Assembly (NCBI RefSeq): GCF_900129785.1 | Contig: NZ_FSRC01000001.1 | Coordinates: 992,001-1,056,000 of the forward strand | DNA length: 64,000 nucleotides | Origin: Algoriphagus halophilus | GTDB lineage: Bacteria > Bacteroidota > Bacteroidia > Cytophagales > Cyclobacteriaceae | Reading direction: 5' to 3' | Part shown: positions 38,132 to 58,695 of the stretch, piece by piece | Layout: the number at the start of each line of letters is the position of its first letter | Position numbering within the stretch: the stretch's first letter is position 1 | The notes under the pieces: generated by a model | The model's database searches: none | Seen by the model: the letters and a program-made list of their open reading frames with translations, nothing else | What the model was told of the DNA's origin: nothing | Translations under genes and position numbers: made by a program

Positions 38132-38246
38132 GCTAACGTCCAGATATGGCACATGCCTCTGGGCTTTCAAATATCGGTAAATTTTCTTAGTTGCGTTTCA
38201 CTGTCAGGTAACTAAGGTGATGCATGTGGTATATCGTTTGTTACCC
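38132..38246 (-). repeat. attC-like site 1
   Basis: Left core GCTAACG (38132-38138), right core GTTACCC (38240-38246). The arms share GATAT, CACATGC and TC in palindromic register. Distal end of the array, 3' of the S9 peptidase gene. Confidence 0.7.
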
Positions 38247-38286
38247 GGTGTTCCTTAACCCCTAGAAACAAGAGACCTACAAGCAT

Positions 38287-40446
38287 CTACTTAGACGGAA
38301 CGGCTAGGTGTCGGTCAAAGTATTCGATTATCTTACCAAACAGGTAGCGATCGTAATTTTGCTCACGGCTCCATCCATGTGTTGCACCCGGTGCAAACGC
38401 AAAGTCGAAGTCCTTTCCCTGTTTAATCAGTTCTTCAGCTAACACGGTCACTGTCTTGAAGGGGACCACATGGTCTTGCATACCGTGGATAAACAGGAGT
38501 TTATCCTGCAGATTTGATGCATACTTGAGTGCTTTTCTATCGAAGATCTCCGGGTGTGTCTGTGGGGTACGGACAATCGCAACATCGTCCGTGCCAAAGA
38601 ACATCGGGTCAACAGCCGCTGCTGCAGCAACCCCTACCTGGAATAAGCCCGGCTTCATCAACAGCGAATAAACGGAGAGTGTGCCACCGTAACTGCTGCC
38701 CCAAATACCGATGCGATCGGGATCGACATAATCCAGTGACTCCATGTAGGCAACGGCACTTGCATAATCCTCAATGTCCTGGTCCGCAAAACCCAGCAGG
38801 AACTCTTCACGGAATGCTCTACCATAACCGTCGCTACCTCGTGAATCCACCTGCATGATAATATATCCCTTCTTGACCAACAGTTGCTGCACGAGGCTGT
38901 AGTTACCGGCCCAGCGGTTTCTCGCTGTATTCGAATACACGGGCCCAAACAGCACTGGATACTTCTTACCGGGCTGCATATTTGTAGGTTTCAGAATCCG
39001 TGCATGCAGCGTGTATTCATCTACAAGACTGGGGAAACTAACGTATTCCGCAGCCGCCCAGGTTCGCTCCGTGAAGGCGGGCAACGGGGAATTGGTTACT
39101 CGCGTAGCGTCACCACCCTCGCTGCTTACCACATAAAGCTCGGGCGGTGATGTGTCATTGCTGTGCATGAACACCAAGTGCCGGCCATCCGGTGAGGGGT
39201 AGCCATCGTTCCTGCCCGAAAGACGTGTCACCTGCTCTGGATCGCCACCGGACATCTTCAGGCGATACACGTGTTGTTCGTACGGATTGACGCCGTTGCC
39301 TGGATAAAACAGTGCATCACCAGCAATACTTGGAGCGGACAGTACATCGTAGGACGGATCTGTCAGGAGCTGCGGAAGATCCCCAGACGGTGAGGCATCG
39401 ATCGTGTACAGGCCGTAGCGATCACCCATATCGCTTAAGAAAACAACCTTCTTTCCATCCGGATGCCAGGTAGACCCAAACGATGTATACATGCGGCTCT
39501 CTCGAACACCTCGCCAAATCTCGCGCAGTTGGCTTTCTCCGGGTGCACCTACAAACAACTTACGTTCAACCGCCGTGTCGGATGCGATATCCACCAGCAG
39601 CGCACCGCTTGGTGACCAGTTGAAGTCGATGACCTGGTTGGCATGCGGATCTGGCAAATCTAGGTATATAATGTTACCACTTTCTACATCGAGCAGTCCA
39701 ACCCTACGAATCTCATTTGGATCGCCCGGGTAACTTCTGCGTACTACGTTGGGATTCGTTTCATCAGCGAGGTAATCCGGGAACGGTACCTTTCGCATCT
39801 CACGTCTGTCAACGATGTGAAATGCAATTGTTTTGCCATCCGGGGACCATTTGTACGTTGGTCCACTCCAGATGCCTGGACCGATTTCACGTTCCGGTCG
39901 ACTGTAGCGCCCCTTCTGTAAGCTCGAGAGACTGGCGATGCCGATCTTGGTGAGCTGGCGATTCTGTTTGGAAGGGAAGTCAGCAAGCCAAAGGTCACCG
40001 TTCCGTATATATGCCGCTTGCTTGCCGTTTGGCGATATCGACAGGTTATGTGCATCTGCCTGGACGGGCATCAACTGGAGGTCGTTTCTCTGGCTCAGCG
40101 AAGTCTGCCATAAGTTGTTACCTCGCAGGCTGACGATTGTGTTCGCGTCGGTCCATGCAATATCGCGCACTGATGCGGATGCCGTATCGGAATTAAGGCG
40201 CACTTGCTTCCCATCGCTTGTGAATACCCAGAGGCCACGCCTAGGATTTCCTGGTTCACTCCAGGAAAAGGCGAAGTGCTTGCTGTTTGGTGCCCAAGTG
40301 GGTTGGGACGGGGTTGTTCCCGTCAATTTTGGCGTTGCGAATAGGTCATCAAGAGTGAGCTCACCTTCCTGTGCTGTTACTATTGAGGGCAACATCATCA
40401 GTAAGCCTGCCACTACCCATGTTTGCCAAAAAGAGATCTGTTGCAT
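38287..40446 (-). CDS. S9 family prolyl oligopeptidase (cassette gene)
   Basis: Exported serine peptidase, 719 residues, with signal peptide to SIVTAQ. A beta-propeller with WD40/PD40-like repeats (KWSPDGKTIAFH, NWSPSGALLVD, TWHPDGKKVVFLSD) precedes a C-terminal alpha/beta hydrolase with nucleophile motif WGSSYGG, Asp near MQDHVVP and His in GATHGW. It cleaves short peptides, likely with DPP-like action. Its base composition is visibly GC-richer than the surrounding host genes and the other cassettes, which suggests recent transfer, perhaps from a proteobacterium. It is the most distal cassette. Confidence 0.92.
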   Translation of the reverse strand: MQQISFWQTWVVAGLLMMLPSIVTAQEGELTLDDLFATPKLTGTTPSQPTWAPNSKHFAFSWSEPGNPRRGLWVFTSDGKQVRLNSDTASASVRDIAWTDANTIVSLRGNNLWQTSLSQRNDLQLMPVQADAHNLSISPNGKQAAYIRNGDLWLADFPSKQNRQLTKIGIASLSSLQKGRYSRPEREIGPGIWSGPTYKWSPDGKTIAFHIVDRREMRKVPFPDYLADETNPNVVRRSYPGDPNEIRRVGLLDVESGNIIYLDLPDPHANQVIDFNWSPSGALLVDIASDTAVERKLFVGAPGESQLREIWRGVRESRMYTSFGSTWHPDGKKVVFLSDMGDRYGLYTIDASPSGDLPQLLTDPSYDVLSAPSIAGDALFYPGNGVNPYEQHVYRLKMSGGDPEQVTRLSGRNDGYPSPDGRHLVFMHSNDTSPPELYVVSSEGGDATRVTNSPLPAFTERTWAAAEYVSFPSLVDEYTLHARILKPTNMQPGKKYPVLFGPVYSNTARNRWAGNYSLVQQLLVKKGYIIMQVDSRGSDGYGRAFREEFLLGFADQDIEDYASAVAYMESLDYVDPDRIGIWGSSYGGTLSVYSLLMKPGLFQVGVAAAAAVDPMFFGTDDVAIVRTPQTHPEIFDRKALKYASNLQDKLLFIHGMQDHVVPFKTVTVLAEELIKQGKDFDFAFAPGATHGWSREQNYDRYLFGKIIEYFDRHLAVPSK

Positions 40447-40456
40447 GTGTTTGTTT

Positions 40457-40712
40457 TAGTAATTGTCTAGTGAAATAATCTTATACTGCTCAAATAGCGC
40501 TCTCGCCAATGAAGCGTACGTTTTCTGAAGGTTTTCCAAGTCGGATTTTTTTGGTTTTCTCCTTACCTCTTCCCTGGAATATAACAGCTTGGAGTAAAGA
40601 AGCTTGGGGCCTTTCAGAGTACTTTTCTATTCGTCTGTAACAAAGAAGGCCACGAAGAACGAACCTTGCGGGAACCACTGTCCGACTCATGTTTTCTTAG
40701 GTGTTGTTAGCC
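40457..40712 (-). repeat. attC-like site 2, degenerate on one side
   Basis: Right core GTTAGCC (40706-40712) is complementary to the end of the esterase cassette at 41999-42005 (GGCTAAC), so it is well supported. The left arm near 40457-40480 is weak (GTAATTG in place of TAACG). The interior, 40490-40690, holds no convincing gene. Confidence 0.45.
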
Positions 40713-40716
40713 TCTA

Positions 40717-41973
40717 TTATTTATTTGATTCAAGCTTTTTTATTCTATCCTTATAGTAGTCTTCGCCACTAATTTCATATGCTATTCTTGCATACTTTAA
40801 TGCGTTTTCTTTGTCTTTTTCAGATTCAAAATAATCTGCCATAGAATCATATACATTAGGACTTTTGGGATAATAGTCAATGTTTATTTTAAAGAAAGCA
40901 TATGATTTTTCACTCTGACCCATCGATAATAATTGATAACCAAGTCGATTTATTACTTGTTCTTCCGGCATAACAGTATACCCAAAATGACTACTTAGTT
41001 CTTTATTTCGTTTATTAAAAATGTTGAGTGCTTCGTCTACAGGCGTATCAGCGTTTTTAATTTTCATCAAATCATTTTTATTTTCTGGGTACCAACTAAA
41101 GAGAAAACATAAAGCATCATAGGTTGATCTTAGAACAACACTATTATGGTCTTCATTGTCATAATACTTCCAATCAAAATTTAGTTTATTTTGATTAGTT
41201 TCACTTGCTGTCTTTGCAAAGGTCAAAATATGACGAATATGTTCTGTTGCTCTTGAGTTATCTTTTAAAACAGAAGTCGTGTCAAGATTTAAATTTAATC
41301 TTGACATCGTATTAGCAACTCCTACAAAAAGTGATTTTTGAAAAAATTGAGTGTTCTTTAAATAAGTCGAATACTCTTTTAAATAATCGTAATCGCCACC
41401 CCTCCATAGACTGGGTTCAATTGCTATATAGTTATTAAAACTAGCGGAATTTAAAAATAATGAATTTAATACAAGTAAACCCCCAATTGAATGTCCAAAA
41501 AAGGTGCGATAAGGTGTTGTAGGATATTTGCTATCTACATAAGGAAGCAATTCATTTTGAATAAACTGAGTAAATTTCTCCCCACCACCAGGTAAAGGGG
41601 AAGCAGGACTTGGATTGTGGGGTTTTGTTGGTGTTAAATCTCTTAGTCTGTTAGTATTATTATCTACTCCAATAATAATCATTTCGGGTACTTTAACCCC
41701 TTCAAGTTGCTGCAGAATTGCTCTAATTTTAAGTAGCTGTGTATCTCCATCTAAAACGATGAGAACCGGATATTTTTTGTTCTTGTCAGATGTTACACTT
41801 TCCGGTACATGTACCCAGATCTTTCTGTATTCACCTAATGTTTTTGAATATAAACTATCAACAAGCCCTATTTCAAATAAATACTGTTGGTCCTTTTTTG
41901 ATTGAGAAAATAATGAATTATGAATAATCATTATTAGTGAGATTGTAAGTATTATTAGTGGCTTATTAATCAT
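40717..41973 (-). CDS. Esterase-like alpha/beta hydrolase with TPR tail (cassette gene)
   Basis: A 418-residue exported protein with an N-terminal hydrophobic signal. Residues about 50-300 form an esterase of the Fes/IroE (esterase D) type: KKYPVLIVLDGD, nucleophile motif FFGHSIGGLL, and HNSVV for the His. The last 80 residues look like TPR-type helices (ENALKYARIAYEISGEDYY). It may hydrolyse siderophore or sugar esters, but the substrate is unknown. AT-rich, unlike the neighbouring S9 gene. The stop lies just inside the site 2 boundary. Confidence 0.85.
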   Translation of the reverse strand: MINKPLIILTISLIMIIHNSLFSQSKKDQQYLFEIGLVDSLYSKTLGEYRKIWVHVPESVTSDKNKKYPVLIVLDGDTQLLKIRAILQQLEGVKVPEMIIIGVDNNTNRLRDLTPTKPHNPSPASPLPGGGEKFTQFIQNELLPYVDSKYPTTPYRTFFGHSIGGLLVLNSLFLNSASFNNYIAIEPSLWRGGDYDYLKEYSTYLKNTQFFQKSLFVGVANTMSRLNLNLDTTSVLKDNSRATEHIRHILTFAKTASETNQNKLNFDWKYYDNEDHNSVVLRSTYDALCFLFSWYPENKNDLMKIKNADTPVDEALNIFNKRNKELSSHFGYTVMPEEQVINRLGYQLLSMGQSEKSYAFFKINIDYYPKSPNVYDSMADYFESEKDKENALKYARIAYEISGEDYYKDRIKKLESNK

Positions 41974-42000
41974 ATAATTTATTTTTTTTTAGTATTTGAG

Positions 42001-42279
42001 GCTAACGGTTTGGCTATGCGTAGTGCGGGATTAGGATGTACTCCATTCTCAGCCAACCAATATGTTTGTTAATTTTCACCGACTTTCATTTCAATACTAC
42101 AACCTATATTACGTATTGGTTTTGTGGTAAAAGGTTTTTTATATTTTATTTTTTATGTTTATCCTCTGTTAATGATGATTATTTTATTTTAGAATAAGAG
42201 CGATTTTATCAGAATTACGCCATTTAGTTGTTATCTAGTTATAAGAATACTAAAGCTTCATTAAGCTAATCAGTTTACC
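42001..42279 (-). repeat. attC-like site 3
   Basis: Left core GCTAACG (42001-42007) with arm GGTTTGGCTATG. Right core GTTTACC (42273-42279), with arm reading AAACTGATTAGCTTAATG on the other strand, aligns to it. The sigma54 gene stop (42275-42277) lies inside the right core. The loop is long (about 240 bp). Confidence 0.55.
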
Positions 42280-44980: not shown

Positions 44981-44995
44981 ATTAATTTGTCTTTT

Positions 44996-45046
44996 GTAAA
45001 CGTTCAGTATATGCCGTGTTTTACTACGCTATATACATTGTTGGCA
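44996..45046 (-). repeat. attC-like site 4 (short)
   Basis: Left core GTAAACG (44996-45002), right core GTTGGCA (45040-45046). The arms share GTATAT and GC. About 51 bp, the shortest site. Confidence 0.6.
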
Positions 45047-45055
45047 TTTCGTAAA

Positions 45056-45652
45056 TTATTTTTTCATGTTTTCTAATTTGATTTTGAAGCCATAATAAGC
45101 ATTAATTAGAAAAAGTAAATTTGTGAGAGGCCCTATTATTAATGCTTGTTTCCAGCCGATAAAACCCATGAATGATATGGAAAAAGCAATAAGTGCAATA
45201 CTTGCAAAGCCAACAGCAGAAAATCGAATCCATTTATTTAATAACAAGTCATAGAGATATAGATGTATCAGACCTCCAAGGAAAACTATATTTCCAAATA
45301 CAAAAACGACGATAGCCATTTGATTAGCCATTTCTGCAATTTCAAAAGGCGTATTTTGATAACCGCCAAGCATAATTGGATATAAACTGAGTGAAATTAA
45401 TTGGCCAACAGAAACTAACGTCCAACTAATCTTTTTAAAGTTAATAGCGAAATAAATTGCTCCAATTGCAATCATAGTCATAAAAACAAATTCGGCTTTC
45501 CAATGGCCTGCATAAATATCCCAATTCTCGTTTATATAATTATGTCTTTCAAGGGGATCTAATGGCGCTTTACTCGAAAGATAGATATAAATTCCAATGG
45601 TAATGTTTATAAACAAATTTCCTAGTATCCAAAGTGTTTTTGCTAATTTCAT
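45056..45652 (-). CDS. Multi-pass membrane protein, unknown (cassette gene)
   Basis: A 198-residue protein with about six hydrophobic helices and no recognisable motif. The N-terminus is MKLAKTLWILGNLFINITIGIY. Flanked by attC-like sites 4 and 5. Function unknown, typical of sedentary-array cargo. Confidence 0.75.
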   Translation of the reverse strand: MKLAKTLWILGNLFINITIGIYIYLSSKAPLDPLERHNYINENWDIYAGHWKAEFVFMTMIAIGAIYFAINFKKISWTLVSVGQLISLSLYPIMLGGYQNTPFEIAEMANQMAIVVFVFGNIVFLGGLIHLYLYDLLLNKWIRFSAVGFASIALIAFSISFMGFIGWKQALIIGPLTNLLFLINAYYGFKIKLENMKK

Positions 45653-45673
45653 ATCTTATTATTTATAATGAAT

Positions 45674-45835
45674 ACCAACGTTTTGGCTATGATGAGTGGG
45701 GATTAGAAAGCACTAACCTTTCCTCTCGCACATAGCCACGCCTTTATTTAAATTTAAAACTTGTTGCGGACTTTCCAATCCCCACCAAAGTATCCTGACC
45801 GTTAAAACCCCATTCATTTATAGCATTTGTTAGCA
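45674..45835 (-). repeat. attC-like site 5
   Basis: Left core ACCAACG (45674-45680), right core GTTAGCA (45829-45835). Its interior is nearly identical to site 12, including GTGGGGATTAGAAAGCACTA and the segment CACATAGCCACGCC. The arms pair through GCTAT, TGA and TGGGG. Confidence 0.8.
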
Positions 45836-45840
45836 ATATT

Positions 45841-46410
45841 TTAATCAGTTAGTATTTTAACATTCAATAATTTGGCAATATCCTTGGCCGAATTCTTAGA
45901 CAATTCAATTAGTTCACCGTTCGCATTCTTCTTGGAAGTTCTCACTCCCTTCAGAGGAATTAATTTGATCAATTTTCCGCTCTTGAGTTGTAAGTGGATT
46001 GAGCTTGCGATAGTATCGGATCCTTGAATTGCTCCGTTGGAATTTTTTAGTCCTGAATTCCTTTTATTCTTTATCAAGACGTGACTTATATCGTCAATTT
46101 GAATGAATTTTTTACCTGTGAATTTATTCAACACAGCCATTCCAGTCTGATTATTGATTATCAATGTTCGAAAATTAAGTGCTATTAAATCTATAAATCC
46201 AAAGAAAAGTAAAAGCCCGAATGCTCCAAGTATGGATATTAGAATGTTAGCTATAAAAGTATTGGACATTTTCATATTAAGAAAAGCTAATACAATTAAA
46301 GCCATCCCAAGAATAAAAAGGAAAAGGAATTCGAACATGGTTATTGGGAATTTAAAGCTCACCTTCGTTTGCCCATTTCCTATTCGTTCTACTTCAGTAA
46401 TTTTCTTCAA
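45841..46410 (-). CDS. Membrane protein with PH-like C-terminal part, unknown (cassette gene)
   Basis: A 189-residue protein with two hydrophobic helices near residues 25-80, and a beta-rich part (GMAVLNKFTGKKFIQIDDISHVLIKN), suggesting a bPH-like domain. Its 3' end lies beside site 5. Function unknown. Confidence 0.72.
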   Translation of the reverse strand: MKKITEVERIGNGQTKVSFKFPITMFEFLFLFILGMALIVLAFLNMKMSNTFIANILISILGAFGLLLFFGFIDLIALNFRTLIINNQTGMAVLNKFTGKKFIQIDDISHVLIKNKRNSGLKNSNGAIQGSDTIASSIHLQLKSGKLIKLIPLKGVRTSKKNANGELIELSKNSAKDIAKLLNVKILTD

Positions 46411-46429
46411 TTGTGAATTTTCAATTATT

Positions 46430-46605
46430 GCTAACGTTTGTGTATTAGCCTGTGCGTTTAGTTGCCACGAAGCTACACATTTGGATAAAAATAAAGCATT
46501 CTGAGGTAAAGCGTAATTCGTTTTTAGGAAGCTTTGTTTGGTGATTTGGGTGAGGTGGGGGATTCTGAACCGAAACGGCTAGCATGGCTTAACACCGTGT
46601 TAGGC
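46430..46605 (-). repeat. attC-like site 6
   Basis: Left core GCTAACG (46430-46436), right core GTTAGGC (46599-46605). The arms share GTGT, TTAGCC or TAAGCC, and TGC. The ancestral HepT stop falls in the right core. Confidence 0.72.
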
Positions 46606-47245: not shown

Positions 47246-47299
47246 ATCTCATAAATACGAAAATGATTGAAAAAGGAAACTAAGGCTATGATAATGTTG

Positions 47300-48038: not shown

Positions 48039-48046
48039 GGTGTTTA

Positions 48047-48844: not shown

Positions 48845-48859
48845 ATTATTTCAATGCCA

Positions 48860-49642: not shown

Positions 49643-49773
49643 GCCAACGGGATTCAGCTTGGAGACGGCGGGCAATCGGAGCCGTTCTCTTACAGCCTAC
49701 TCCTAACTCATATAAGATCCTAAACTTTCTATTTACTCGGAACCGCCCGCTGTCTTCCAAGGTGATGTTAGCA
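49643..49773 (-). repeat. attC-like site 10
   Basis: Left core GCCAACG (49643-49649), right core GTTAGCA (49767-49773). Arms pair through CTTGGA, GAC and GCGGGC. Most of its sequence is shared with site 11. Confidence 0.8.
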
Positions 49774-49782
49774 GAATTCATT

Positions 49783-50433: not shown

Positions 50434-50472
50434 GAATTTCCTCGGTCTCAACTTTTCTTTTTTTGATTTTCT

Positions 50473-50603
50473 GCTAACGGTCCTCAGCTTGGAGACGGTG
50501 GGCATTCGGAGCCCTTCGCTTCCAGCCTACAACTAACTTGTTAAAGGGATAGATTTTCATTTTTACTCGGTTCAGCCCGTTGTCCTCTAAGGTGGTGTTA
50601 TAG
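50473..50603 (-). repeat. attC-like site 11
   Basis: Left core GCTAACG (50473-50479), right core GTTATAG (50597-50603). Strongly similar to site 10 (CTCAGCTTGGAGACGG, CGGAGCC, TTTTTACTCGG). Confidence 0.8.
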
Positions 50604-50618
50604 CGCGTATTTCCTTTT

Positions 50619-50909
50619 TTAGAGTTCAATGGAGATTTTTACCTTCCCACCTAATCCTTTTTCAACAATTTCATAGAGGGTTTTCAGTGTCAAGTTACTT
50701 CCGTTGTTCTCCACCCTTGAAATGTAGGTTCTTTTCTTATCCACCAATTCCGCTAATTGCTCTTGGGTGAGATTTTTGTCCTCTCTTGCCTTCTTTAATT
50801 GCAAGCCAATTTTGAATGACTCAACATCCCTTTCTAATTCATCCCTGCGTTCGGTTCCTTTGACCCCGTACACATCATCTTTGATATCTTTCCAGCTCTT
50901 TGTATTCAT
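50619..50909 (-). CDS. higA: HigA-like antitoxin, XRE-type HTH (cassette gene)
   Basis: A 96-residue antitoxin with helix-turn-helix LTQEQLAELVDKKRTYISRVEN. Overlaps the end of the upstream toxin gene by 4 bases. It neutralises HigB and represses the operon. Order toxin-antitoxin is typical for HigBA. Confidence 0.88.
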   Translation of the reverse strand: MNTKSWKDIKDDVYGVKGTERRDELERDVESFKIGLQLKKAREDKNLTQEQLAELVDKKRTYISRVENNGSNLTLKTLYEIVEKGLGGKVKISIEL

Positions 50910-51274
50910 TTTCCTTTCTTTTTTCCTTTTTTAACTTCCTTTTCAGCATAATATTCATCCATCAGTTTGGCAGCCTTTTCGATTTCCTTGGTTGGTGTTT
51001 TTTGGGTTTTCTTTTGAAAGCCATTGAGAAGTATCACTAGCTTTCCTTCATCGAAAAAACAAAACACCCTCCATATATTAGATGCCAACTGAACCCTGGC
51101 TTCATATAGCCCTTTCTTTGTTTTGATAGCTTTCAGGTAAGTTTCTGGAACTCTTTCCAAAGTTTCAATCGCTTCAATGACCTTAAAAACCTTGTTTTGA
51201 ACTTTTTCTGTTTGGGCTTTTAAAAAGTTCTCAAAATGGTCCTGATAAGCAATGACCTCCCTTACTTTTTCCAT
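50906..51274 (-). CDS. higB: HigB/Gp49-like RNase toxin (cassette gene)
   Basis: A 122-residue RelE-superfamily mRNA interferase of the phage-Gp49-like group: LYEARVQLASNIWRVFCFFDEGKLVILLNGFQKKTQKTP is the family core, with a Lys-rich tail. Located directly upstream of higA. Toxin-antitoxin cassettes are known to stabilise large integron arrays. Confidence 0.88.
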   Translation of the reverse strand: MEKVREVIAYQDHFENFLKAQTEKVQNKVFKVIEAIETLERVPETYLKAIKTKKGLYEARVQLASNIWRVFCFFDEGKLVILLNGFQKKTQKTPTKEIEKAAKLMDEYYAEKEVKKGKKKGK

Positions 51275-51283
51275 AACGTAAAT

Positions 51284-51299
51284 GTAACTTAAAAGTTAC
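51284..51299. promoter_or_regulatory. Probable HigBA operator
   Basis: Inverted repeat GTAACTT-AA-AAGTTAC, 10 bases upstream of the higB start. Position suits autoregulation by HigA (inference). Confidence 0.55.
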
Positions 51300-51416
51300 T
51301 AATCTCAAATTGCGAAAGCCTATTATTTGAGTAATTGACTTTCAAAAACATCTTAGGTTAGTTTGAAATCCATTAATTCAATAGATTAAAATTAGGACAT
51401 TACAATCCTCCTTTTT

Positions 51417-51962
51417 TCAATTTCTCAACAAGCCAAAAATTAAAATTGGCAAATAACTTACCAGAATATTTAACAAAGCTATGCTATACTTAAATTTTTG
51501 AATTTTAGCTACTCCAATAATTAGGAGACCAAATGACTAAAGCCAGAGCAAATAAATTATCCCATAATTTATATTTTCCAACTTTGGTTCTACCCCGAAA
51601 ATAAAAATTGAAATTTGATAGATTAGGACAATATTCAATGGGAAAAACGAAAGGGAGCAAATATTGGACATTTTTCTTAGAGTGGATTCTCCTTTCCAAA
51701 TCTTGCCACAAAATTTAATAAGTCCTGGTATAATTAAGCCAAGCATCAAGAAAGATAATCCAATACCTAAAGGCAATGCAAAAAAGAAAGCCCAAATCCT
51801 TCCTCCTTCATCAAAAATAGAGGCTATATCTGGATATGCATCTAACCCGAAGATTAAACCGTTTCCTATTATTGGCAGTATCAGAAAAGGTTGTTTTTCT
51901 CTACTTGCTAATTCTTCAAAAGTAACTCTAGGGTTAATCCAAATGCTTTTGTATGGATTCAT
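51417..51962 (-). pseudogene. Yip1-like membrane protein with internal amber stop (cassette gene)
   Basis: Membrane protein starting MNPYKSIWINPRVTFEEL, a Yip1-domain beginning common in Bacteroidota. After 141 residues an in-frame TAG (51537-51539) follows LLWL. The same frame then continues SFGLLIIGVAKIQKFKYSIALLNILV... for about 39 codons to TGA (51417-51419), and those residues complete the expected last helices. Read through, 181 residues. A TGG-to-TAG change is the simplest explanation. It shares the cassette 50478-51981 with higBA, with no clear attC-like site between. Confidence 0.72.
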
Positions 51963-51976
51963 GTTCTAGTATGCGC

Positions 51977-52137
51977 TATAACGACCAGCTATGATGAGTG
52001 GGGATTAGAAAGCACTAATCTCTCGTCTCGCACATAGCCACGCCTTGATTTAAATTTAAAACTTGTGGCGGCCTTTCCAAGTGCCGCCAAACTATCCTGA
52101 CCGATAAAACCCCATTCATTCATAGCAAATGTTATGC
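51977..52137 (-). repeat. attC-like site 12
   Basis: Left core TATAACG (51977-51983), right core GTTATGC (52131-52137). Near copy of site 5 over about 150 bp. The next gene's stop (52132-52134) is inside the right core. Confidence 0.8.
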
Positions 52138-52962
52138 ACCTTTACCCTCTTCGTTCTTGCTATGTTGGGCAATAATGTTCGCCATTTTCTCATCTTGAGC
52201 CTGTTCCTTCTCCTTCTGAAATTTCTTAATCCAGAAAGCAATAGCAAAAACAGGAACTGAAAATGTTAAGAACCAAGGAGCAACTAAACCCGACTTAGAA
52301 AAGCCAGCTCCCAGAAGTTGAAAACTGATGAGTTGAAAGTCAAATTCGCTAGTTGTCCAGTTCAGTTTGAACTTGATAAATGTAAACAAGATTCCTATAA
52401 TCCAAAGCCATTTACGTTTCATTGGTGTTCGAATAGCCGCTACTAAAGTGAAAATGACAAAACCAACGGAGGCAATAGCCAGGATGAAAAATATGTAGTT
52501 AATAGCAGGCTTTCCAGAAAACGTAAAGGCATGGATTTTCGACAAGGGTGCTTCCATCCATCTTGCGTCAAATCCTGTTACTGTTAGTTTGTTCCCTTCT
52601 TTTAAGATGTTGAAGAAGAAATAGATTGACTGTTCATCAAGTTCTTGTTCGTACTCAACAATATAGTTTGTTGTTGGATTGTCGCCCATGAAAGAAGTAT
52701 ATCGACCATTTATCATGTTCAGCGAGTCCAACTGTAGTGAACTGATTCCAGATGCAATGTTAGACATGAAGGTTCGGCCTTCTTCGTTCTGCATGTTCTC
52801 AGCGACTTTGGTTAGACATTCGTCAATTTGATTTTGTTGAATATCTGTGATGAATGTTCTTGCAAACTGATCTACTTCGGTTGGGACAATCTTGCTCAGT
52901 TCAATGTTCGGATTGCAGGAAATGAGAGTTCCGAGCATTAGGGCGGTTAGTATTCTTTTCAT
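52132..52962 (-). CDS. Lipoprotein with two transmembrane segments, unknown (cassette gene)
   Basis: A 276-residue protein. Lipobox LISC at about residue 16 (MKRILTALMLGTLISC), a soluble part to about 145, then two or three hydrophobic helices and a charged tail (KKFQKEKEQAQDEK). No family recognised. Cassette ends GTTATGCACC and GGTGCATAAC are exact complements. Confidence 0.7.
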   Translation of the reverse strand: MKRILTALMLGTLISCNPNIELSKIVPTEVDQFARTFITDIQQNQIDECLTKVAENMQNEEGRTFMSNIASGISSLQLDSLNMINGRYTSFMGDNPTTNYIVEYEQELDEQSIYFFFNILKEGNKLTVTGFDARWMEAPLSKIHAFTFSGKPAINYIFFILAIASVGFVIFTLVAAIRTPMKRKWLWIIGILFTFIKFKLNWTTSEFDFQLISFQLLGAGFSKSGLVAPWFLTFSVPVFAIAFWIKKFQKEKEQAQDEKMANIIAQHSKNEEGKGA

Positions 52963-52985
52963 TAATTCGTCTTGTATTTATGGTG

Positions 52986-53121
52986 CATAACGGTTAGGCT
53001 ATGCCCAGTAAGGGATTTCTAAGAGAAAACCTTTTGGATTGCACTGAGCCAAAGCGTTGCATTTTGTTTTTATCTTATTTATTTTAAAAGCCAAATCAAC
53101 GATTTGGCGGGTATGTTATGA
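52986..53121 (-). repeat. attC-like site 13 with internal hairpin
   Basis: Left core CATAACG (52986-52992), right core GTTATGA (53115-53121). The arms pair poorly. The interior has a perfect 8-bp hairpin GCCAAATC/GATTTGGC (53090-53108). Possibly a hybrid site. Confidence 0.6.
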
Positions 53122-53847
53122 CAGCCAACTTTTCAATTTAGCAATGAAACCCTTTTTGGGTATAGCCATTGTTGTATGCTGGCTTTTTTTAATTTTCAGA
53201 TTGTCCTTTGACTCGATTATCGTTTTCTCTGTATCACCCCATTCCCATCTGTAAACGCAGATATCATCACTTTCACATTTAGGGCAAGTCTTTAACCAAC
53301 TTTGGAATTTTGAAACTTCAATTTCGGATGTAGTCAAATACTTTTTAATTCTTATGCGTACAGATTCAATTTCTTCTGTATCTATCCAATTAGAAATTGG
53401 TAAGAGGTTTTCCAGTTCGTCTTTCTTAATCAAATCCGTTATCAGTTCTGGTAAAAATTTAAAAGAAAGATATTGTTCAATTTGATTTTCATCTAGCCTT
53501 GAATGTCCGCAATTTCTGCATCGCCATCCACTCATTTGCCCAGTTCCGTATTGGTAAAATTTTAATGATGTTGGTGCAGTGTCAATCCGGTGTTTCGCTA
53601 AACTCCAACATAGGTTTTTGATTGTGTCAAATACTTGGTTGTTCCAAATACCCAGTTTGTCAGTTCCACCAACATATAAGTCATTTATCGACCCCATTCC
53701 ACCGTACGCACCTAGATGATGTTTTACATCTTTTTTAGACTCCCACAGTTCAATATCCGTACTTATCCAATTAGCCCAATGTGAATTATCAGACTCTTCC
53801 AAAAGTCGTTTTAATATTCTTAATGATATTTTATAATGGTCTGTCAT
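53116..53847 (-). CDS. Zinc-ribbon protein, unknown (cassette gene)
   Basis: A 243-residue protein from MTDHYKISLRILKRLL. Residues 1-70 contain WHYGGMG-like AYGGMGSINDL seen in a small DUF family. Two Cys pairs follow, CRNC and CPKC...CVYRWEWGDTE, for probable zinc binding. The frame is open to 53892, but the first 15 codons overlap attC-like site 14, so the start at 53847 is chosen. Stop lies in site 13. Confidence 0.72.
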   Translation of the reverse strand: MTDHYKISLRILKRLLEESDNSHWANWISTDIELWESKKDVKHHLGAYGGMGSINDLYVGGTDKLGIWNNQVFDTIKNLCWSLAKHRIDTAPTSLKFYQYGTGQMSGWRCRNCGHSRLDENQIEQYLSFKFLPELITDLIKKDELENLLPISNWIDTEEIESVRIRIKKYLTTSEIEVSKFQSWLKTCPKCESDDICVYRWEWGDTEKTIIESKDNLKIKKSQHTTMAIPKKGFIAKLKSWLS

Positions 53848-53857
53848 TCTGCTTGCA

Positions 53858-53923
53858 TACAACGGTTTGTGTATGGTGTCGTAGCATCCCACAGGGTGCT
53901 ATGCACCATACACATTGTTGTGT
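53858..53923 (-). repeat. attC-like site 14
   Basis: Left core TACAACG (53858-53864), right core GTTGTGT (53917-53923). One of the best palindromes: TGTGTATGGTG, TAGCA and CCC pair across the centre. About 66 bp. Confidence 0.8.
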
Positions 53924-53970
53924 TTTCGTGCTTTATTTTCAGGTGTTATTTCAACTCTAGTTGATTCCAA

Positions 53971-55554
53971 TTACAGCCCAATGTTTTTTGGTGGATACTT
54001 TTTGAATGTTGCCGCATGCGATTTCAACTGTGCACCTAAAGAAGCTAACCAGGCATTTCTACGATGCCCTACAGGCATTTCTTCTTTTGGGTCTATGTAT
54101 AAATTGAACAGCCAAGGTGCTAGGCCAACATCCTGAATAGTTGCATAGTCAATCCACATATGAGGTGCTTGTGGGATAATGACTTTAATGTGTTCTTTGT
54201 ATTCTCGCATTCGAATGCCCATCAGTTCAGTACCCCACCAAAAATAAACCGATTCCCGATTCCCCTTTCCATTATCGTGAAACAGGAAACTTGATTGGTC
54301 AATAAAATCATAATATCTGTCATCAGGGAGTTCGTCTTGAGAAATGCCTGCAAGGCGTAGGCTAGTGCCGAACAGATCCATTAAATCAAAAACATCATCA
54401 CTTGCTCTTCCAGGGCTTATCATTCCTTTCCAATAGGCAATACCCGGTACGCGAACACCACCTTCGAATGTTGTTCCTTTAGCTCCTCTAAACGGAGTAT
54501 ATCCACCATCTGGCCAGGCATCCATTTGCGGGCCGTTGTCTGAAGTGACGAAGACAAAAGTGTTTTCTAATTCACCTGCTTCTTCCAATGCTTTAAGAAT
54601 TCGACCAATATGCATGTCTACTTCAACAACAGCATTTTTATAGGGGTATTTGGCAGCACTAAGCCCTGGATAATCAGGGTTGTCAAAATTATCGGCATGC
54701 ACTTTCATAAAGCAATGCTCAATAAAGAAGGGCTTATCCGATCCAGACAATTCCTTAATCTTAGAAATGGTAAAATCGGCCAATTTATGGTCAGCACGTC
54801 CCATGTCTCCCAGGCTTTTGATTTCCTCCAGTTCGTTGGTTGTCCCGTCTTTAAAGCCATGCGTCAAGTGATTAGCTGGACGAATAGTTTCAAACGCTTT
54901 AATAAGTTCTTCATTAAGCACCAAATCAGGGAAACGTCTTGGGTCAATTCCTTGAGTAATCTCTTTTTGGGCCGGATAATAGCCGTAATATTCATCAAAA
55001 CCTACATCGTGCGGGCGCATGCCTTCAGCTTCACCCACATGCCATTTTCCTGTAAGCAGGGTATAATAGCCGTTGTCGCTCAGTAGTTTGGGTAGGCTTA
55101 CTTCATCGGCCCATGGATTCTTAGTTATCTTATCGCCTGCCAATATAGGACGAGTTAATCCCGTGCGAACAGGAAGCCTTCCTGTTAAAATGGCTGACCG
55201 TGTTGGGGTACAGGTTTGTTGGGAATAACAGGAGGTCAATTTTAAACCTTCAGCAGCCAGTTTATCCATTGCTGGTGTCGCGGCACCAATAGCAGCTCCA
55301 CCTCCATAAGCGCCAGGTTCTCCATACCCCAAATCATCAATAATGATCCATACTATATTTGGTTTCTTACCCGTTTTTTTCTCAAGCTCAGCTAGTTTTT
55401 GAGTTATGTCTTTATCTTGTTCAGGGTGAGGAATCGAGGGTTCAAAATTCTCGACCGTCTTAATCGCTCGATTAAAACTTTGGGCGTTTGATTCAAAATA
55501 TCCTATAACCAGAAAGAGTCCGATTAACGTTAAATGGAGAGCTTTTCTTTTCAT
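53971..55554 (-). CDS. Secreted arylsulfatase (cassette gene)
   Basis: Full-length sulfatase, 527 residues, signal MKRKALHLTLIGLFLVIG...SNAQ. IIIDDLGYGEPG for metal binding, TCTPTRSAILTGR with the formylglycine Cys, GKWHVGEAEGM, and TSDNGPQMDAW. It hydrolyses sulfate esters in the periplasm. As a cassette gene it shows that the array carries metabolic genes matching the host lifestyle. It is unlike the sulfatase at 3-1727 in sequence detail. Cassette ends GTTGTGTTT and AAACACAAC match. Confidence 0.93.
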   Translation of the reverse strand: MKRKALHLTLIGLFLVIGYFESNAQSFNRAIKTVENFEPSIPHPEQDKDITQKLAELEKKTGKKPNIVWIIIDDLGYGEPGAYGGGAAIGAATPAMDKLAAEGLKLTSCYSQQTCTPTRSAILTGRLPVRTGLTRPILAGDKITKNPWADEVSLPKLLSDNGYYTLLTGKWHVGEAEGMRPHDVGFDEYYGYYPAQKEITQGIDPRRFPDLVLNEELIKAFETIRPANHLTHGFKDGTTNELEEIKSLGDMGRADHKLADFTISKIKELSGSDKPFFIEHCFMKVHADNFDNPDYPGLSAAKYPYKNAVVEVDMHIGRILKALEEAGELENTFVFVTSDNGPQMDAWPDGGYTPFRGAKGTTFEGGVRVPGIAYWKGMISPGRASDDVFDLMDLFGTSLRLAGISQDELPDDRYYDFIDQSSFLFHDNGKGNRESVYFWWGTELMGIRMREYKEHIKVIIPQAPHMWIDYATIQDVGLAPWLFNLYIDPKEEMPVGHRRNAWLASLGAQLKSHAATFKKYPPKNIGL

Positions 55555-55588
55555 ATTATTACCATTTTATATTTAATCTTGCATGAAA

Positions 55589-55719
55589 CACAACGTTTTG
55601 CAGCTACCCGAAGGTGGTGATTTCGAAGCACTTCACTGTCATGCAGGCAGAAACTTTGATAGAAGCACAAAGCTTGATTTAACCACTGAACCGCCACTTT
55701 TGGGTAGGTGCTGTTATGC
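55589..55719 (-). repeat. attC-like site 15
   Basis: Left core CACAACG (55589-55595), right core GTTATGC (55713-55719). Arms share GCA, CTACCC, AA, GTGG. Stop of the following gene is inside the right core. Confidence 0.8.
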
Positions 55720-56583
55720 ACAGTAGCTTTTGATTATTGTTTCTGATTCTCTTTTCATTTCTTCGAATGTCCTTACAAATTCGTCACACCGTTCTTTTGC
55801 AATTGGGCTATTCTTTTTTACAAATCCTGCTCGTTTGCCTAAAAATTCAAAATTGTCCTGATAATCCCAACATAAGTCCCACGAACAGCCTTCAAAGTTC
55901 GGAAAAGCTGCTTGAAGAAAGGCATATTCATTTGTCTTAAATGTTGCCCGTCCAATTTTAATTTTCTTTAATTTTTTCAAATGTAGTATTGGTAGAAATG
56001 AAGGAAATTCTGTCTTGCTAATAATAAAACCTAATGAGAAAACTTCAAGGTTTGGAAGTCCCTTTAAGAACTCAAAGTTTTCTATCGGTTGATTCCAGTC
56101 AAGTGTTCCGTCAATATGTAAATACCTTAAACTATTAAGTCCTTTTAATCCGTCAAAATTTGAAACTCTACGCAGATTCTCAAAATGCAAAGATTTTAAT
56201 TTTGTCAATTTAATTAATGGTGTCAAGTCTGAAAAGCCAGAAACGTATTCAAGTATAACTTCTTCTAAATTTATTAGGTCACCAAGAAATTCAATGTCCT
56301 TAGCTCGGAAAAATGTTACCCTAATTCTTTTGAGATTTGTCAATTTACGAATTGCTTGAACTTGTTCTTTACTTGGGTCGTGTAGAGTCATTTCTTCAAG
56401 ATTTTGACATTCAAAAACTTGTTCCCAATGCTCTTTTTCTTGAGTCTTACTTATGGTTAAGATTTTCACTTCGTCTTTGTTTGCAATTTCAAAGTCCGCT
56501 ATAAATGCAAATCTTTCTCTATTTGGAATTGTCGTCCAATAGTCGCCCGTCCTGTCTAAAAAATCTCCAAAATGATGTTTCAT
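55714..56583 (-). CDS. Leucine-rich-repeat-like protein (cassette gene)
   Basis: A 289-residue cytoplasmic protein with about five degenerate LRR-type units (NLEEMTLHDPSKEQ, NLKRIRVTFFRAKDIEFL, LKSLHFENLRRVSNF, LRYLHIDGTL, NLEVFSLGF). Likely a protein-binding solenoid, function unknown. Cassette ends GTTATGCACA and TGTGCATAAC are exact complements. Confidence 0.75.
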   Translation of the reverse strand: MKHHFGDFLDRTGDYWTTIPNRERFAFIADFEIANKDEVKILTISKTQEKEHWEQVFECQNLEEMTLHDPSKEQVQAIRKLTNLKRIRVTFFRAKDIEFLGDLINLEEVILEYVSGFSDLTPLIKLTKLKSLHFENLRRVSNFDGLKGLNSLRYLHIDGTLDWNQPIENFEFLKGLPNLEVFSLGFIISKTEFPSFLPILHLKKLKKIKIGRATFKTNEYAFLQAAFPNFEGCSWDLCWDYQDNFEFLGKRAGFVKKNSPIAKERCDEFVRTFEEMKRESETIIKSYCA

Positions 56584-56603
56584 TGTCGTGTCTTGCTATT
56601 GTG

Positions 56604-56729
56604 CATAACGGTTTGGCTAAAGCTAGTGCGGCTTTGCGTGAATTCTTAAAGAACCGAGATCGACATTGTCAACCGTATCATAGTCTGCCGAAGGCGAAAT
56701 GACCGCATTAGCTTTAGGTATTGTTAGCG
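56604..56729 (-). repeat. attC-like site 16
   Basis: Left core CATAACG (56604-56610), right core GTTAGCG (56723-56729). Strong palindrome: CTAAAGCTA and TGCGG on both arms. About 126 bp. Confidence 0.85.
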
Positions 56730-56742
56730 CCAGTGTTTGTAT

Positions 56743-57204
56743 TCATTTTTTGATTTTCAAGTCGCCTGAAATTGGATAGGTTTTAGTTATATCGTTAAGC
56801 TGTCTTACCATTTCGGAAATAATTGTCTGGTCAAAATTTATCTCAAAATCAAGTTTGTTTCCTATTCCTGCATCGTCCATTACAGAGCAGTCAGCTTCAA
56901 AATGTCCGATCCCATCTCCTTTAATTTTTATTTCAACCTGTCCTTCCATTGTATTAAAGGATGCCGTTCCGTCCAACTTGTCATAAAGCTGCGAAAGACT
57001 TTTTTTGAATCTTTCAAAGTCAGTAGTCATTAAGTCACACTCAAATTGTCCTGAGAAACCACCTGCCTTGACGATCACATTTGATTTAATCCAATTCCTG
57101 TCCCAGTCGAGTTCAGCGTTTGGATAATTCAAATTCATCAATTCAATTCTAATGAAGTCTCCGCTGTCCTTTAGTTCAAAATATATTGTTTCGTTGTCGG
57201 TCAT
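56743..57204 (-). CDS. Cassette protein of unknown function, proximal cassette
   Basis: A 153-residue soluble beta-rich protein: MTDNETIYFELKDSGDFIRIELM..., ending EMVRQLNDITKTYPISGDLKIKK. It resembles the WapI-like immunity-type fold only loosely. It lies in the cassette next to the recombinase (ends GTTAGCGCCA and TGGCGCTAAC match exactly), the place of most recent insertion in an integron. Confidence 0.68.
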   Translation of the reverse strand: MTDNETIYFELKDSGDFIRIELMNLNYPNAELDWDRNWIKSNVIVKAGGFSGQFECDLMTTDFERFKKSLSQLYDKLDGTASFNTMEGQVEIKIKGDGIGHFEADCSVMDDAGIGNKLDFEINFDQTIISEMVRQLNDITKTYPISGDLKIKK

Positions 57205-57215
57205 TTTACATTGGC

Positions 57216-57306
57216 GCTAACGTTTGTATATCCCCAATTGGGTATATCATCCGAAATAGGATCGGTATCCACAGGTAGTTGGTGATATTTCTCATTTATG
57301 TTAACT
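57216..57306 (-). repeat. Candidate attI-like site beside the recombinase
   Basis: Left core GCTAACG (57216-57222) comes from the first cassette. The rest lacks the usual right arm and contains a small hairpin TATATCCC-CAATT-GGGTATA. A GTTAACT at 57300 may be the far core. Position between cassette one and the recombinase gene suits an attI. Confidence 0.45.
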
Positions 57307-57318
57307 TAGTAAACTTAG

Positions 57319-58695
57319 TTAAATGTCCAATTTATCCAAGGGACTTTGTATTTGATCAAATCCTTTTGTGGTAATATGGGTGTAAATTTGTGTTGTTTTT
57401 GGGCTTTCATGCCCCAACAAACTTTGGATGTATCTGAGATCAGTACCATTCTCCAAAAGATGGGTAGCGAAGGAATGCCTTAGTGTATGAGGTGTTACTT
57501 TTTTTCTGATGTTGGTTTTTGATACTGCTGCCTTTACAATGGATTCAATACTGGTAGTGGAATATTTTATTGGTTTCTCTTTTGTACTCCCTTGTCCCTC
57601 GAAAAGGTAATATATAGGTCTTTCTCTTTTGATGTATTCCCTTAAAATTGTTAATGTTCTTTTTGATAATATCGTGTACCTGTCTTTTTTACCTTTGGCT
57701 TGTTTGATGAATATCTGCATTCTCTTGGAATCTATGTCATTGATCGTTAAATCAATTAATTCGGATACTCTCAATCCTGCAGAATAGATGGTCATCAAAA
57801 TTGCTTTGTGCTTTAAGTTTTTCGTTGCATTAAAAATGGATATGATTTCTTCCTGACTGCAGACTGTGGGTAATTTTTTTTCTCTGATTGGCCGATCCAC
57901 ATGGTAGAATTTACGCTCGCCACCTTTTACTTTTTCAAAATAAAATTTAATTGCATTGATCGCTTGATTTTGTAATGAGCTTGAAACTTTCCGCTCCGTT
58001 ACCAAATATCTTGAAAATTCCAATATTTCTTTCTCGCCTAAACTGTCTATTTCAAGATCTGGAAAGTGGTTTATAAACTCTTCAAAAAGGGGGATGTAAG
58101 CTCTTATAGTACTTGGGCTATATCTCCTTTCTTTAAGCTTGTTCACATAGGCCTCTGGACATTTTTTATAATCTGGAATAGATAAAGGACTGGTTTTTGG
58201 TTTTATTTTATTCGCTTTTTCCTGCTTAAAGATGAGTTTTAAACCTAATTCTTCAATTTTCTTTTTTACTTCTGCTTCATACTGCTTGGAATAAGGAATT
58301 GTCCACCATTTGTTTTGAGTGTCCCATTTGTAATAGGGTATTGTTTTGAGATACCTAATTAGTTCAATTTTAAAACCAAAAATCAATTTGATGCGTCCAC
58401 TGTTGGCATGCACCATTACTACCTCATTTTCCTGAATGACGCCTTTTTTGGTAACTGGGCTTGATATTTCTAAGTGGATTTGTAGTATTGAAATCCTGTT
58501 ACCAAAATACCCCTTTACCTTTTCCAGATTCCCAGGATAATGGGGGATTTCCCAAAGAAAAAGATCTTTATTCCAACGTGAATAAAGAATGCCTCTCACA
58601 AAGCTGATATCAGCTTCATTTTTTGGCATTTTCAAGAGAATCTTTCTCCCCTTTACTTCTATTTCAACTGCTTTATTCATTAAAAAAATATTCAA
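57319..58695 (-). CDS. Tyrosine recombinase, putative integron-type integrase with N-terminal HARP-like repeats
   Basis: A 458-residue recombinase. Core-binding SAM-like domain at about 178-265, catalytic domain 275-450 with Arg309 (GLRVSE), Lys at 334-337 (AKGKKDR), His403-x-x-Arg406 (HTLRH), His429 (LLGH) and nucleophile Tyr438 (IYTH). The ending GFDQIQSPLDKL matches the GAGVRSPLD-type end of IntI proteins. The stretch between 345 and 400 seems too short for the IntI-specific helix insertion. Residues 9-72 and 99-154 are two related modules with a W...W.IPY pattern resembling HARP domains, known from SMARCAL1 to bind forked or single-strand/double-strand junction DNA. It reads in the same direction as the cassettes, unlike class 1 integrons. 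Confidence 0.85.
   Translation of the reverse strand: MNIFLMNKAVEIEVKGRKILLKMPKNEADISFVRGILYSRWNKDLFLWEIPHYPGNLEKVKGYFGNRISILQIHLEISSPVTKKGVIQENEVVMVHANSGRIKLIFGFKIELIRYLKTIPYYKWDTQNKWWTIPYSKQYEAEVKKKIEELGLKLIFKQEKANKIKPKTSPLSIPDYKKCPEAYVNKLKERRYSPSTIRAYIPLFEEFINHFPDLEIDSLGEKEILEFSRYLVTERKVSSSLQNQAINAIKFYFEKVKGGERKFYHVDRPIREKKLPTVCSQEEIISIFNATKNLKHKAILMTIYSAGLRVSELIDLTINDIDSKRMQIFIKQAKGKKDRYTILSKRTLTILREYIKRERPIYYLFEGQGSTKEKPIKYSTTSIESIVKAAVSKTNIRKKVTPHTLRHSFATHLLENGTDLRYIQSLLGHESPKTTQIYTHITTKGFDQIQSPLDKLDI

What the first reader, a model, noticed from the sequence alone, without database searches (positions are those of the whole stretch)
38132..58695. Integron-like cassette array in a Bacteroidota chromosome with its own recombinase
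Seen: about 16 gene segments (one to three genes each, mostly minus strand) separated by imperfect palindromes that all start AACG and end GTT on the plus strand. No transposase is present, and a tyrosine recombinase sits at one end. Known: integrons use this geometry (attC sites, cassettes, IntI). Inference: this is a chromosomal integron-like system of Bacteroidota, whose sites differ from the classical GTTRRRY consensus (they fit GTTNNNN), so standard tools may miss it. Whether it has been described before I cannot tell.
Basis: partly seen in the sequence, partly recalled or inferred. Interest (0 to 1): 0.95.

Follow-up and report, generated by a model that had tools for sequence, protein, structure and literature searches.

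The report
Integron run by a HARP-domain recombinase
This Algoriphagus-like chromosome carries a row of at least 13 gene cassettes, each ending in a DNA site predicted to fold into a hairpin, beside a recombinase that lacks the domain defining integron integrases and has a predicted HARP-type domain instead; it is likely a second kind of integron, and its recombinase family is common in this bacterial class, so it would mean that gene capture by cassettes does not need the classical enzyme.

Summary
Thirteen consecutive segments (57221 down to 44999) begin GTTN7 and end with the complementary N7AAC (mean 6.6 of 7; 0 of 100,000 permutations as high), all coding away from the recombinase and ending in predicted hairpin sites. 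The recombinase (57319-58695) is followed by an attI-like element; in many relatives different cassettes follow it. Against Algoriphagus lutimaris the flank is 94-97% identical while the 10 kb of array held share nothing; single cassettes turn up about 91% identical in other genera, ending at or near the sites. So it very likely works as an integron.

It is not a canonical one. The recombinase forms a clade apart from IntI and lacks the IntI-specific insert (61-66 versus 103 residues); its N-terminus is predicted to be two HARP-like repeats, a junction-binding domain in SMARCAL1. GTTRRRY fits only 9 of 96 cassettes, and the pairing of cassette ends resumes beyond a fixed mismatch at position 8, unlike in 21 canonical cassettes compared. 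Relatives occur in 180 of 395 class genomes. A truncated copy with an attI-like site stands before tet(X3) on an Acinetobacter plasmid. Recombination itself is untested.

The parts
57319..58695 (-). tyrosine recombinase, 458 aa (start TTG as called), the likely cassette integrase
   Evidence: Phage_integrase 3.2e-39; conserved motif strings with R, K, HxxR and H...Y located; closest solved structure IntI4 2a3v by sequence and by fold
58201..58695 (-). N-terminal region, two predicted b-b-a-b-b-a-b repeats, HARP-like
   Evidence: profile A3 hits SMARCAL1 HARP 4o66 at E 3.8e-4; HARP in 36 of 40 relatives, best 5.8e-4; window alone E 0.13, below cut-off; the two repeats align to each other, hhalign probability 90, E 1.6e-6; model pLDDT 87.9
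57370..57855 (-). catalytic domain without the IntI-specific insert
   Evidence: 66 residues between the columns of window residues 332 and 398 against 103 in 15 of 15 IntI (whose printed labels K332/H398 are five too low for this protein)
57219..57247 (-). attI-like element: 20-nt imperfect inverted repeat, 6 nt, then GTT junction with cassette 1
56607..57221 (-). cassette 1: WapI-like immunity gene 56743-57204 plus site 56607-56725
55592..56609 (-). cassette 2: leucine-rich-repeat gene 55714-56583 plus site 55592-55715
53861..55594 (-). cassette 3: sulfatase gene 53971-55554 plus site 53861-53919
52989..53863 (-). cassette 4: DUF6966 gene 53116-53892 (ORF as called starts 29 nt before the boundary) plus site 52989-53173
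   Evidence: the model matches only part of this site, 53094-53177
51980..52991 (-). cassette 5: unknown gene 52132-52962 plus site 51980-52133
50476..51982 (-). cassette 6: Yip1-like gene 51537-51962, Gp49/HTH toxin-antitoxin-like pair 50619-51274, plus site 50476-50599
   Evidence: pair recurs in other genera
49646..50478 (-). cassette 7: unknown gene 49783-50505 (ORF as called starts 27 nt before the boundary) plus site 49646-49769
   Evidence: 91% identical in another genus, L156
48863..49648 (-). cassette 8: unknown gene 48994-49617 plus site 48863-48984
47914..48865 (-). cassette 9: unknown gene 48047-48844 plus site 47914-48034
   Evidence: whole cassette 91.5% identical in another genus, L155
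47303..47916 (-). cassette 10: unknown gene 47345-47830 plus site 47303-47380 (weakest inner stem, 2.4; no model hit)
46433..47305 (-). cassette 11: nucleotidyltransferase and HepT-like pair 46714-47245 plus site 46433-46601 (no model hit)
45677..46435 (-). cassette 12: unknown gene 45841-46410 plus site 45677-45831
44999..45679 (-). cassette 13: unknown gene 45056-45652 plus short site 44999-45042
40579..42130 (-). isolated cassette: site 42000-42130, esterase gene 40717-41973, degenerate site 40579-40712 (TGTT end, read by eye)
   Evidence: covariance model hits; 6 of 7 end complementarity; esterase
38135..38242 (-). degenerate distal palindrome without cassette-end match or model hit

Best explanation
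The recombinase at 57319-58695 likely builds and reshuffles the adjacent cassette array as an integron integrase would, by joining a double-stranded attI-like site that follows its own stop codon to cassette-end sites predicted to fold as single-stranded hairpins. Shown from sequence: cassette ends are mutually complementary, the attI-like junction is followed by different cassettes in different species, single cassettes recur in other genera bounded by the sites, and the enzyme lacks the IntI-specific insert. Inferred: that the enzyme acts on these sites; that the bottom strand is the one used (it is predicted to fold more stably in 86 of 96 cassettes, probably because fixed A.C mismatches of the top strand become T.G wobbles); that the two HARP-like N-terminal repeats recognise the folded site and so take the place of the IntI I2 domain. 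On this reading it is a second kind of integron of Bacteroidia.
For: Cassette ends: window; 96 cassettes: positions 1-6 paired in 93-95, which 83 of the 96 were selected for; positions 8-12, not selected for: 8 paired in 2, 9-11 in 71-79. Structure: 49-site alignment, 83.8% of cells paired against 58.0 shuffled and 28-37 slid, covariation 0.423 against 0.102. attI-like junction in relatives. Cassette chains from the junction: 44 of 74 family loci give at least 1, control strand 18; at least 2: 20 against 1. 93 of 94 cassettes with an ORF of 60 aa or more read away from the recombinase. Genomes: at least 2 sites in 28 of 29 with a family recombinase, 9 of 29 without. All 44 model hits in 11 named recombinase loci lie on the recombinase strand, one of them upstream of it. 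Site-bounded exchange. Enzyme. Canonical IntI arrays of the same phylum, run through a near-identical procedure, pair at position 8 in 13 of 21 cassettes.
Against: No recombination, circular cassette or binding was observed. The 49 model sites were preselected for an inner stem, which inflates (the 13 window sites were not). 9 of 32 family loci with 4 kb or more downstream gave no chain (one of them, L041, has a matching end 8 kb away); some members, such as the copies in G039, may do something else. 9 of 29 genomes without a full recombinase still have 2 or more sites. Two of the 13 window sites have no model hit. HARP is below the Pfam cut-off in the window protein itself, none of ten shorter relatives scanned matched HARP at E up to 1 (their kind's N-termini align to one repeat of this protein with hhalign probability 56-97 in four groups), and Foldseek gave nothing under E 0.06 for that region. 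Bottom-strand preference holds in only 9 of 13 window sites.
Confidence: 0.85

Rival explanations
1. A canonical integron with an ordinary but divergent IntI integrase.
For: Closest solved structure is IntI4; TIGR02249 matches with 215 bits; site logic is the same.
Against: Below the TIGR02249 cut-off; 61-66 residues against 103 where IntI has its insert, in 42 of 42 family rows against 15 of 15 IntI; separate clades (IntI 100/100, family 89/63); N-terminal HARP-like repeats; array co-directional with the integrase; GTTRRRY in 9 of 96.
Confidence: 0.08
2. The array is moved by the host XerC/XerD and the neighbouring recombinase is unrelated.
For: The genome has two other tyrosine recombinases, and XerCD is known to act in the integration of a phage whose site is a hairpin without extrahelical bases (PMC4792948, passages).
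Against: Sites go with the family recombinase across genomes (28 of 29 against 9 of 29), on its strand and mostly after its stop codon; the loci of the two Xer genes have no chain within the 1.5 kb held.
Confidence: 0.04
3. The palindromes are transcription terminators or dispersed repeats (REP-like) between unrelated genes, and the array is a static gene cluster.
For: Some sites are alike (45686-45832 and 51988-52134, 90%).
Against: Complementarity links the two ends of each gene segment, not only the two arms of one palindrome; the array stretches held differ between relatives with 94-97% identical flanks; shared segments end at or near the sites.
Confidence: 0.02
4. The array is a relic: cassettes were captured by such an enzyme but the system is now inactive here.
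For: Distal sites are degenerate and a non-cassette block sits among them; the recombinase is a mosaic relative to A. lutimaris.
Against: Thirteen proximal cassettes have matching ends, the recombinase frame is open with its catalytic motifs, and cassettes about 91% identical in other genera point to exchange that is not ancient.
Confidence: 0.15

Closest known systems
Integrons with IntI integrases (for example the Vibrio cholerae superintegron, class 1 integrons)
   Same: attI-like site at the integrase, array of mostly single-gene cassettes in one direction, cassette-end sites with complementary R and L arms, unpaired spacer and variable loop, GTT core, site-bounded exchange between genera
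   Different: integrase lacks the I2 insert and is a separate clade; HARP-like N-terminus; array downstream of and co-directional with the integrase; GTTRRRY rarely met; R arm pairs on to about position 11 past a fixed mismatch at position 8; fixed 1x1 mismatches rather than a seen fixed bulge
Integron-like subgroup of simple tyrosine recombinases (PMC8138268, passages read)
   Different: the passages I read describe no cassette arrays or sites for such members, and the text does not hold the word HARP
XerCD with folded single-stranded phage DNA (CTX phage)
   Same: tyrosine recombinases without I2 acting on a hairpin
   Different: no cassettes, no own attI, host enzyme (PMC4792948, passages)
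HARP domains of SMARCAL1 and phage T4 UvsW
   Same: sequence profile match to the SMARCAL1 HARP crystal 4o66; described as junction-specific DNA binding (PMC4666394, passages)
   Different: there fused to a translocase motor, here to a tyrosine recombinase

Membership tests
Canonical integron (IntI) | integrase with the IntI-specific I2 insertion | tested here: not met
   61-66 against 103 residues between two fixed alignment columns, 42 of 42 family rows against 15 of 15 IntI; alignment
Canonical integron (IntI) | integrase over the TIGR02249 cut-off | tested here: not met
   215.3 bits, cut-off 265; own genome without a stretch at E 1e-40
Canonical integron (IntI) | attC-type cassette ends: inverted complementary R boxes and paired L boxes | tested here: met
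Canonical integron (IntI) | core site GTTRRRY | tested here: not met
   9 of 96 cassettes, 2 of 13 in the window
Canonical integron (IntI) | attI site next to the integrase gene as insertion point | tested here: met
   position and variable first cassette; use as insertion point not tested
Canonical integron (IntI) | extrahelical bases that choose the bottom strand | tested here: inconclusive
   no fixed bulge seen in alignment A1; fixed 1x1 mismatch at columns 23/158 in 36 of 40; bottom strand more stable in 86 of 96
Canonical integron (IntI) | cassettes in one orientation | tested here: met
   93 of 94 with an ORF of 60 aa or more, 13 of 13 in the window
Canonical integron (IntI) | integrase-dependent excision and insertion of cassettes | not testable with these tools
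   needs a recombination assay; only site-bounded sharing seen
Canonical integron (IntI) | common promoter Pc and SOS control of the integrase | not tested
   no promoter or LexA analysis made
HARP domain (PF07443) | match above the Pfam gathering score | tested here: inconclusive
   window 12.3 bits, cut-off 25; longer relatives P0109 37.8, P0110 28.0, P0114 28.2; none of ten shorter relatives at E up to 1
XerC/XerD equivalog | over the TIGR02224 (XerC) and TIGR02225 (XerD) cut-offs | tested here: not met
   174 and 179.5 bits, cut-offs 335.15 and 329.6

The most novel reading that the evidence does not exclude
A second class of integrons, 'HARP integrons', is the native gene-capture system of Bacteroidia: a tyrosine recombinase without the I2 domain reads folded cassette sites through HARP repeats that recognise the hairpin and its fixed wobble positions, so hairpin-site recombination arose or persisted without the I2 domain, which would bear on how integrons began; the tet(X3) gene of Acinetobacter plasmids stepped out of such a platform as a first cassette.
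Probability: 0.48. Interest if true: 0.95.

Novelty: new variant of a known kind. Interest (0 to 1): 0.88.

Why it matters
Integron integrases carry the I2 insert, and it was argued that the insert and the folded sites pose a chicken-and-egg problem (PMC4792948, passages). A cassette system with folded sites, an attI-like site and a recombinase without that insert makes the question testable: does another structure-reading module (HARP) do the job, and is the insert needed at all? It also points to a large little-read reservoir of cassettes: relatives of the recombinase in 180 of 395 genomes of the host's class (Bacteroidia, by recalled taxonomy), up to 52 sites found in one genome. And the xerD-tet(X3) unit known from Acinetobacter plasmids contains, in the two records I looked at, a truncated member of this family before tet(X3), with an attI-like site between them in the one whose letters I read, which gives a concrete idea of how that gene may have left Bacteroidota.
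Full report
Where it is. The window lies in a 4.98-Mb genome (G000) whose msbA-like neighbour protein (58889-60634) is 100% identical to that of Algoriphagus lutimaris L041 and whose flank is 94-97% identical in DNA over the long stretches aligned, so the host is an Algoriphagus close to that species (inference). The genome has three tyrosine recombinases, of which only this one stands by the array.

The cassettes. Read away from the recombinase, each segment begins GTTNNNNNNN and ends with the complement followed by AAC. The 13 consecutive segments from 57221 to 44999 score 5.5 to 7 of 7 (mean 6.6); starts paired with the wrong ends average 2.6, and 0 of 100,000 permutations reach the observed sum. 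The end had been chosen as the best AAC within about 240 nt, with no other candidate shown above 5 of 7. The two arms of each site also pair inside (mean 7.05 against 3.7; 0 of 1000 permutations), the weakest being 47303-47380 with 2.4. This is the logic of integron cassettes, where the end site of a circular cassette closes on its own start. A fourteenth cassette (esterase 40717-41973) lies apart, between two sites found by the model. A block with a sigma-54 regulator and an OsmC gene (42275-44914) and the S9 peptidase 38287-40446 do not obey the rule. All 13 cassettes have their longest ORF in the same direction. Contents: a WapI-like immunity protein, leucine-rich repeats, a sulfatase, two toxin-antitoxin-like pairs (Gp49/HTH and nucleotidyltransferase/HepT-like) and mostly unknown proteins.

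The junction. In about 25 of 37 named recombinase loci printed (judged by eye; one search had found 40) the recombinase stop is followed by an element of the form inverted repeat, several nt, GTT, after which the sequence differs from genome to genome. In 41 loci with a chain, the inverted repeat reaches the 95th percentile of control stretches in 24, most often 5-8 nt before the GTT. I call it attI-like.

Other genomes. A chain search for cassettes from this junction gave at least one cassette in 44 of 74 non-duplicate family loci and at least two in 20; the opposite strand of the same stretches gave 18 and 1. Nine of the 32 loci with at least 4 kb downstream gave none; in one, A. lutimaris, the matching end lies 8 kb away and three model hits stand there and beyond. 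Of 94 cassettes with an ORF of at least 60 aa, 93 point away from the recombinase. A covariance model from 49 sites (R1) found 13 hits in the window at E up to 1, all minus strand; in the whole own genome 7 of 11 hits fall in this array, 3 in a second cluster 390 kb away and 1 alone, with only 150 of 1357 candidates scored. In 58 genomes (own and relatives), 28 of 29 with a family recombinase (E up to 1e-55) have 2 or more hits, against 9 of 29 without (Fisher 1.8e-7). In 11 named loci all 44 hits lie on the recombinase strand, one of them upstream of it; several of those loci supplied training sites, while L037, L038, L040 and L041 did not. Family relatives occur in 180 of 395 genomes of the class at E up to 1e-55. 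Canonical IntI is over its cut-off in 84 of 296 genomes of the phylum, of which only one (G094) is listed as same class.

Site-bounded exchange. Against A. lutimaris the flank is 94-97% identical over several kilobases (90.8% in the piece at the start of the recombinase), the 3' part of the recombinase only 68.6%, and the 10 kb held beyond its stop share nothing with the window at E 1e-10. Cognataquiflexum rubidum and nitidum are about 89.5% identical through the recombinase and the attI-like element and lose all similarity about 30 nt after the GTT. A search of 118 genomes of the family with the window array (83 with a match) shows the reverse: single cassettes shared between genera. Cassette 9 is 91.5% identical over 950 columns in L155, from 4 nt after the cassette start to the last base of the site; cassette 7 is 91.4% in L156, starting 14 nt before the cassette start and ending 21 nt before the site end; the Gp49/HTH part of cassette 6 is 76-93% in nine fetched loci and 68-69% in seven more, and in L157 ends on the last base of the site. 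Sites alone, up to 96% identical, match in many genera without the gene that they follow here.

The sites. Over 96 cassettes the arm formed by cassette start and end pairs at positions 1-6 in 93-95, at 7 in 61, at 8 in 2, and again at 9-11 in 71-79; 83 of the 96 had been selected for a match over positions 1-7, none for positions beyond. The mismatch at 8 is A.C in 69. In 21 canonical cassettes from four IntI loci of other Bacteroidota (12 loci fetched), found by a near-identical procedure (any base before GTT, end match of 6 or more), position 8 pairs in 13 and positions 9-11 in 17 of 63 cells (Fisher 3e-10 and 1e-14). In the inner stem of 49 aligned sites, 83.8% of cells pair (58.0 shuffled; 28-37 when slid), with a covariation score of 0.423 against 0.102, and one position (columns 23/158) is unpaired in 36 of 40; these sites had been preselected for an inner stem, which favours that count. 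A.C mismatches on the top strand are T.G on the bottom strand: predicted DNA folding is more stable for the bottom strand in 86 of 96 (control stretches 228 of 480; window sites 9 of 13; canonical 13 of 21). In canonical integrons the bottom strand is chosen through extrahelical bases (PMC2727003, passages read); I saw no fixed bulge here. That the mismatches do this job is inference.

The enzyme. Its core is closest to IntI4 and archaeal XerA among solved structures but lacks the stretch that makes IntI: between two fixed columns (window residues 332 and 398; the labels printed are five too low for this protein) it has 66 residues, relatives 61-66 (42 of 42 rows with the window), Xer 67-68 (3 of 3), IntI 103 (15 of 15). 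In the tree IntI is one clade (100/100), the family another (89/63), with three Xer rows outside, one of them on a long branch; other recombinase families were not sampled, so a sister relation is not shown. The N-terminal 165 residues are predicted as two b-b-a-b-b-a-b repeats that align to each other (hhalign probability 90). HARP (PF07443) matches 36 of 40 relatives weakly (best 5.8e-4; window 0.13, below the cut-off) and longer relatives above the cut-off; a profile of the region finds the SMARCAL1 HARP crystal 4o66 at E 3.8e-4. Ten shorter relatives (351-406 aa) gave no HARP hit at E up to 1; four groups of such N-termini align to one repeat of this protein with probabilities 56, 97, 82 and 78, so the short forms probably keep one repeat, less surely. 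[quoted passage not shown] No paper in the library holds both 'HARP domain' and 'tyrosine recombinase'. That HARP reads the folded site is my inference.

Membership and novelty. By function it is very likely an integron; by the defining enzyme feature, which was tested and not met, it is not a canonical one. [quoted passage not shown] I therefore call it a new variant of a known kind, and a strong candidate for a second class.

A lead with medical bearing. Sixty-seven plasmid records match the enzyme at E up to 1e-50, 50 of them Acinetobacter. In the one whose letters I read, the C-terminal half of a family recombinase (65% identical over residues 214-458) ends 189 bp before tet(X3); between them stands an attI-like element, a 9-bp inverted repeat, 7 nt and GTT, and after tet(X3) what looks by eye like the left half of a cassette site. 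A second record has the same gene order. The xerD-tet(X3) arrangement itself is known (PMC7494873, passage read). The two ends do not match each other by my reading, so this is suggestive only.

Noticed in passing
L184 4058-6079 (Acinetobacter indicus p80-1-2-tetX3): truncated family recombinase, attI-like element and tet(X3) in first-cassette position; suggests a Bacteroidota integron-like platform as the source of the xerD-tet(X3) unit
   Followed up: partly
G000:C1:637334-645742 (L152): second cluster of three model hits on one strand, 390 kb from the array and with none of the genome's three tyrosine recombinases nearby; a CALIN-like cluster
   Followed up: partly
L070 9767-10819 (Runella sp. 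CRIBMP): family recombinase core fused to a single-strand binding protein (SSB 1.3e-30) in place of the HARP region, followed by a 5-cassette chain; real fusion or deletion product unknown
   Followed up: partly
L041 5924-9789 (A. lutimaris): about 3.9 kb inserted between the msbA-like gene and the recombinase, with a 104-bp stretch duplicated at both edges and a cassette-site hit at 7323-7450; the recombinase itself is a mosaic (90.8% then 68.6% identical to the window)
   Followed up: partly
45686-45832 and 51988-52134: two sites of the same array 90% identical over 147 nt after unrelated genes, as among repeats of superintegrons
   Followed up: no
42275-44914: sigma-54 regulator and OsmC gene inside the site-bearing stretch but without cassette ends; 44934-44987 after OsmC is an inverted repeat with 25-nt arms, 88% complementary
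   Followed up: no
38287-40446: S9 peptidase gene at the distal end, no intact cassette ends; looks richer in G+C than its neighbours by eye
   Followed up: no
G039:C1 (several places): several recombinase copies with equal scores (39% to the query, 297-326 aa frames) across one genome, transposon-like, and few cassette sites there
   Followed up: no
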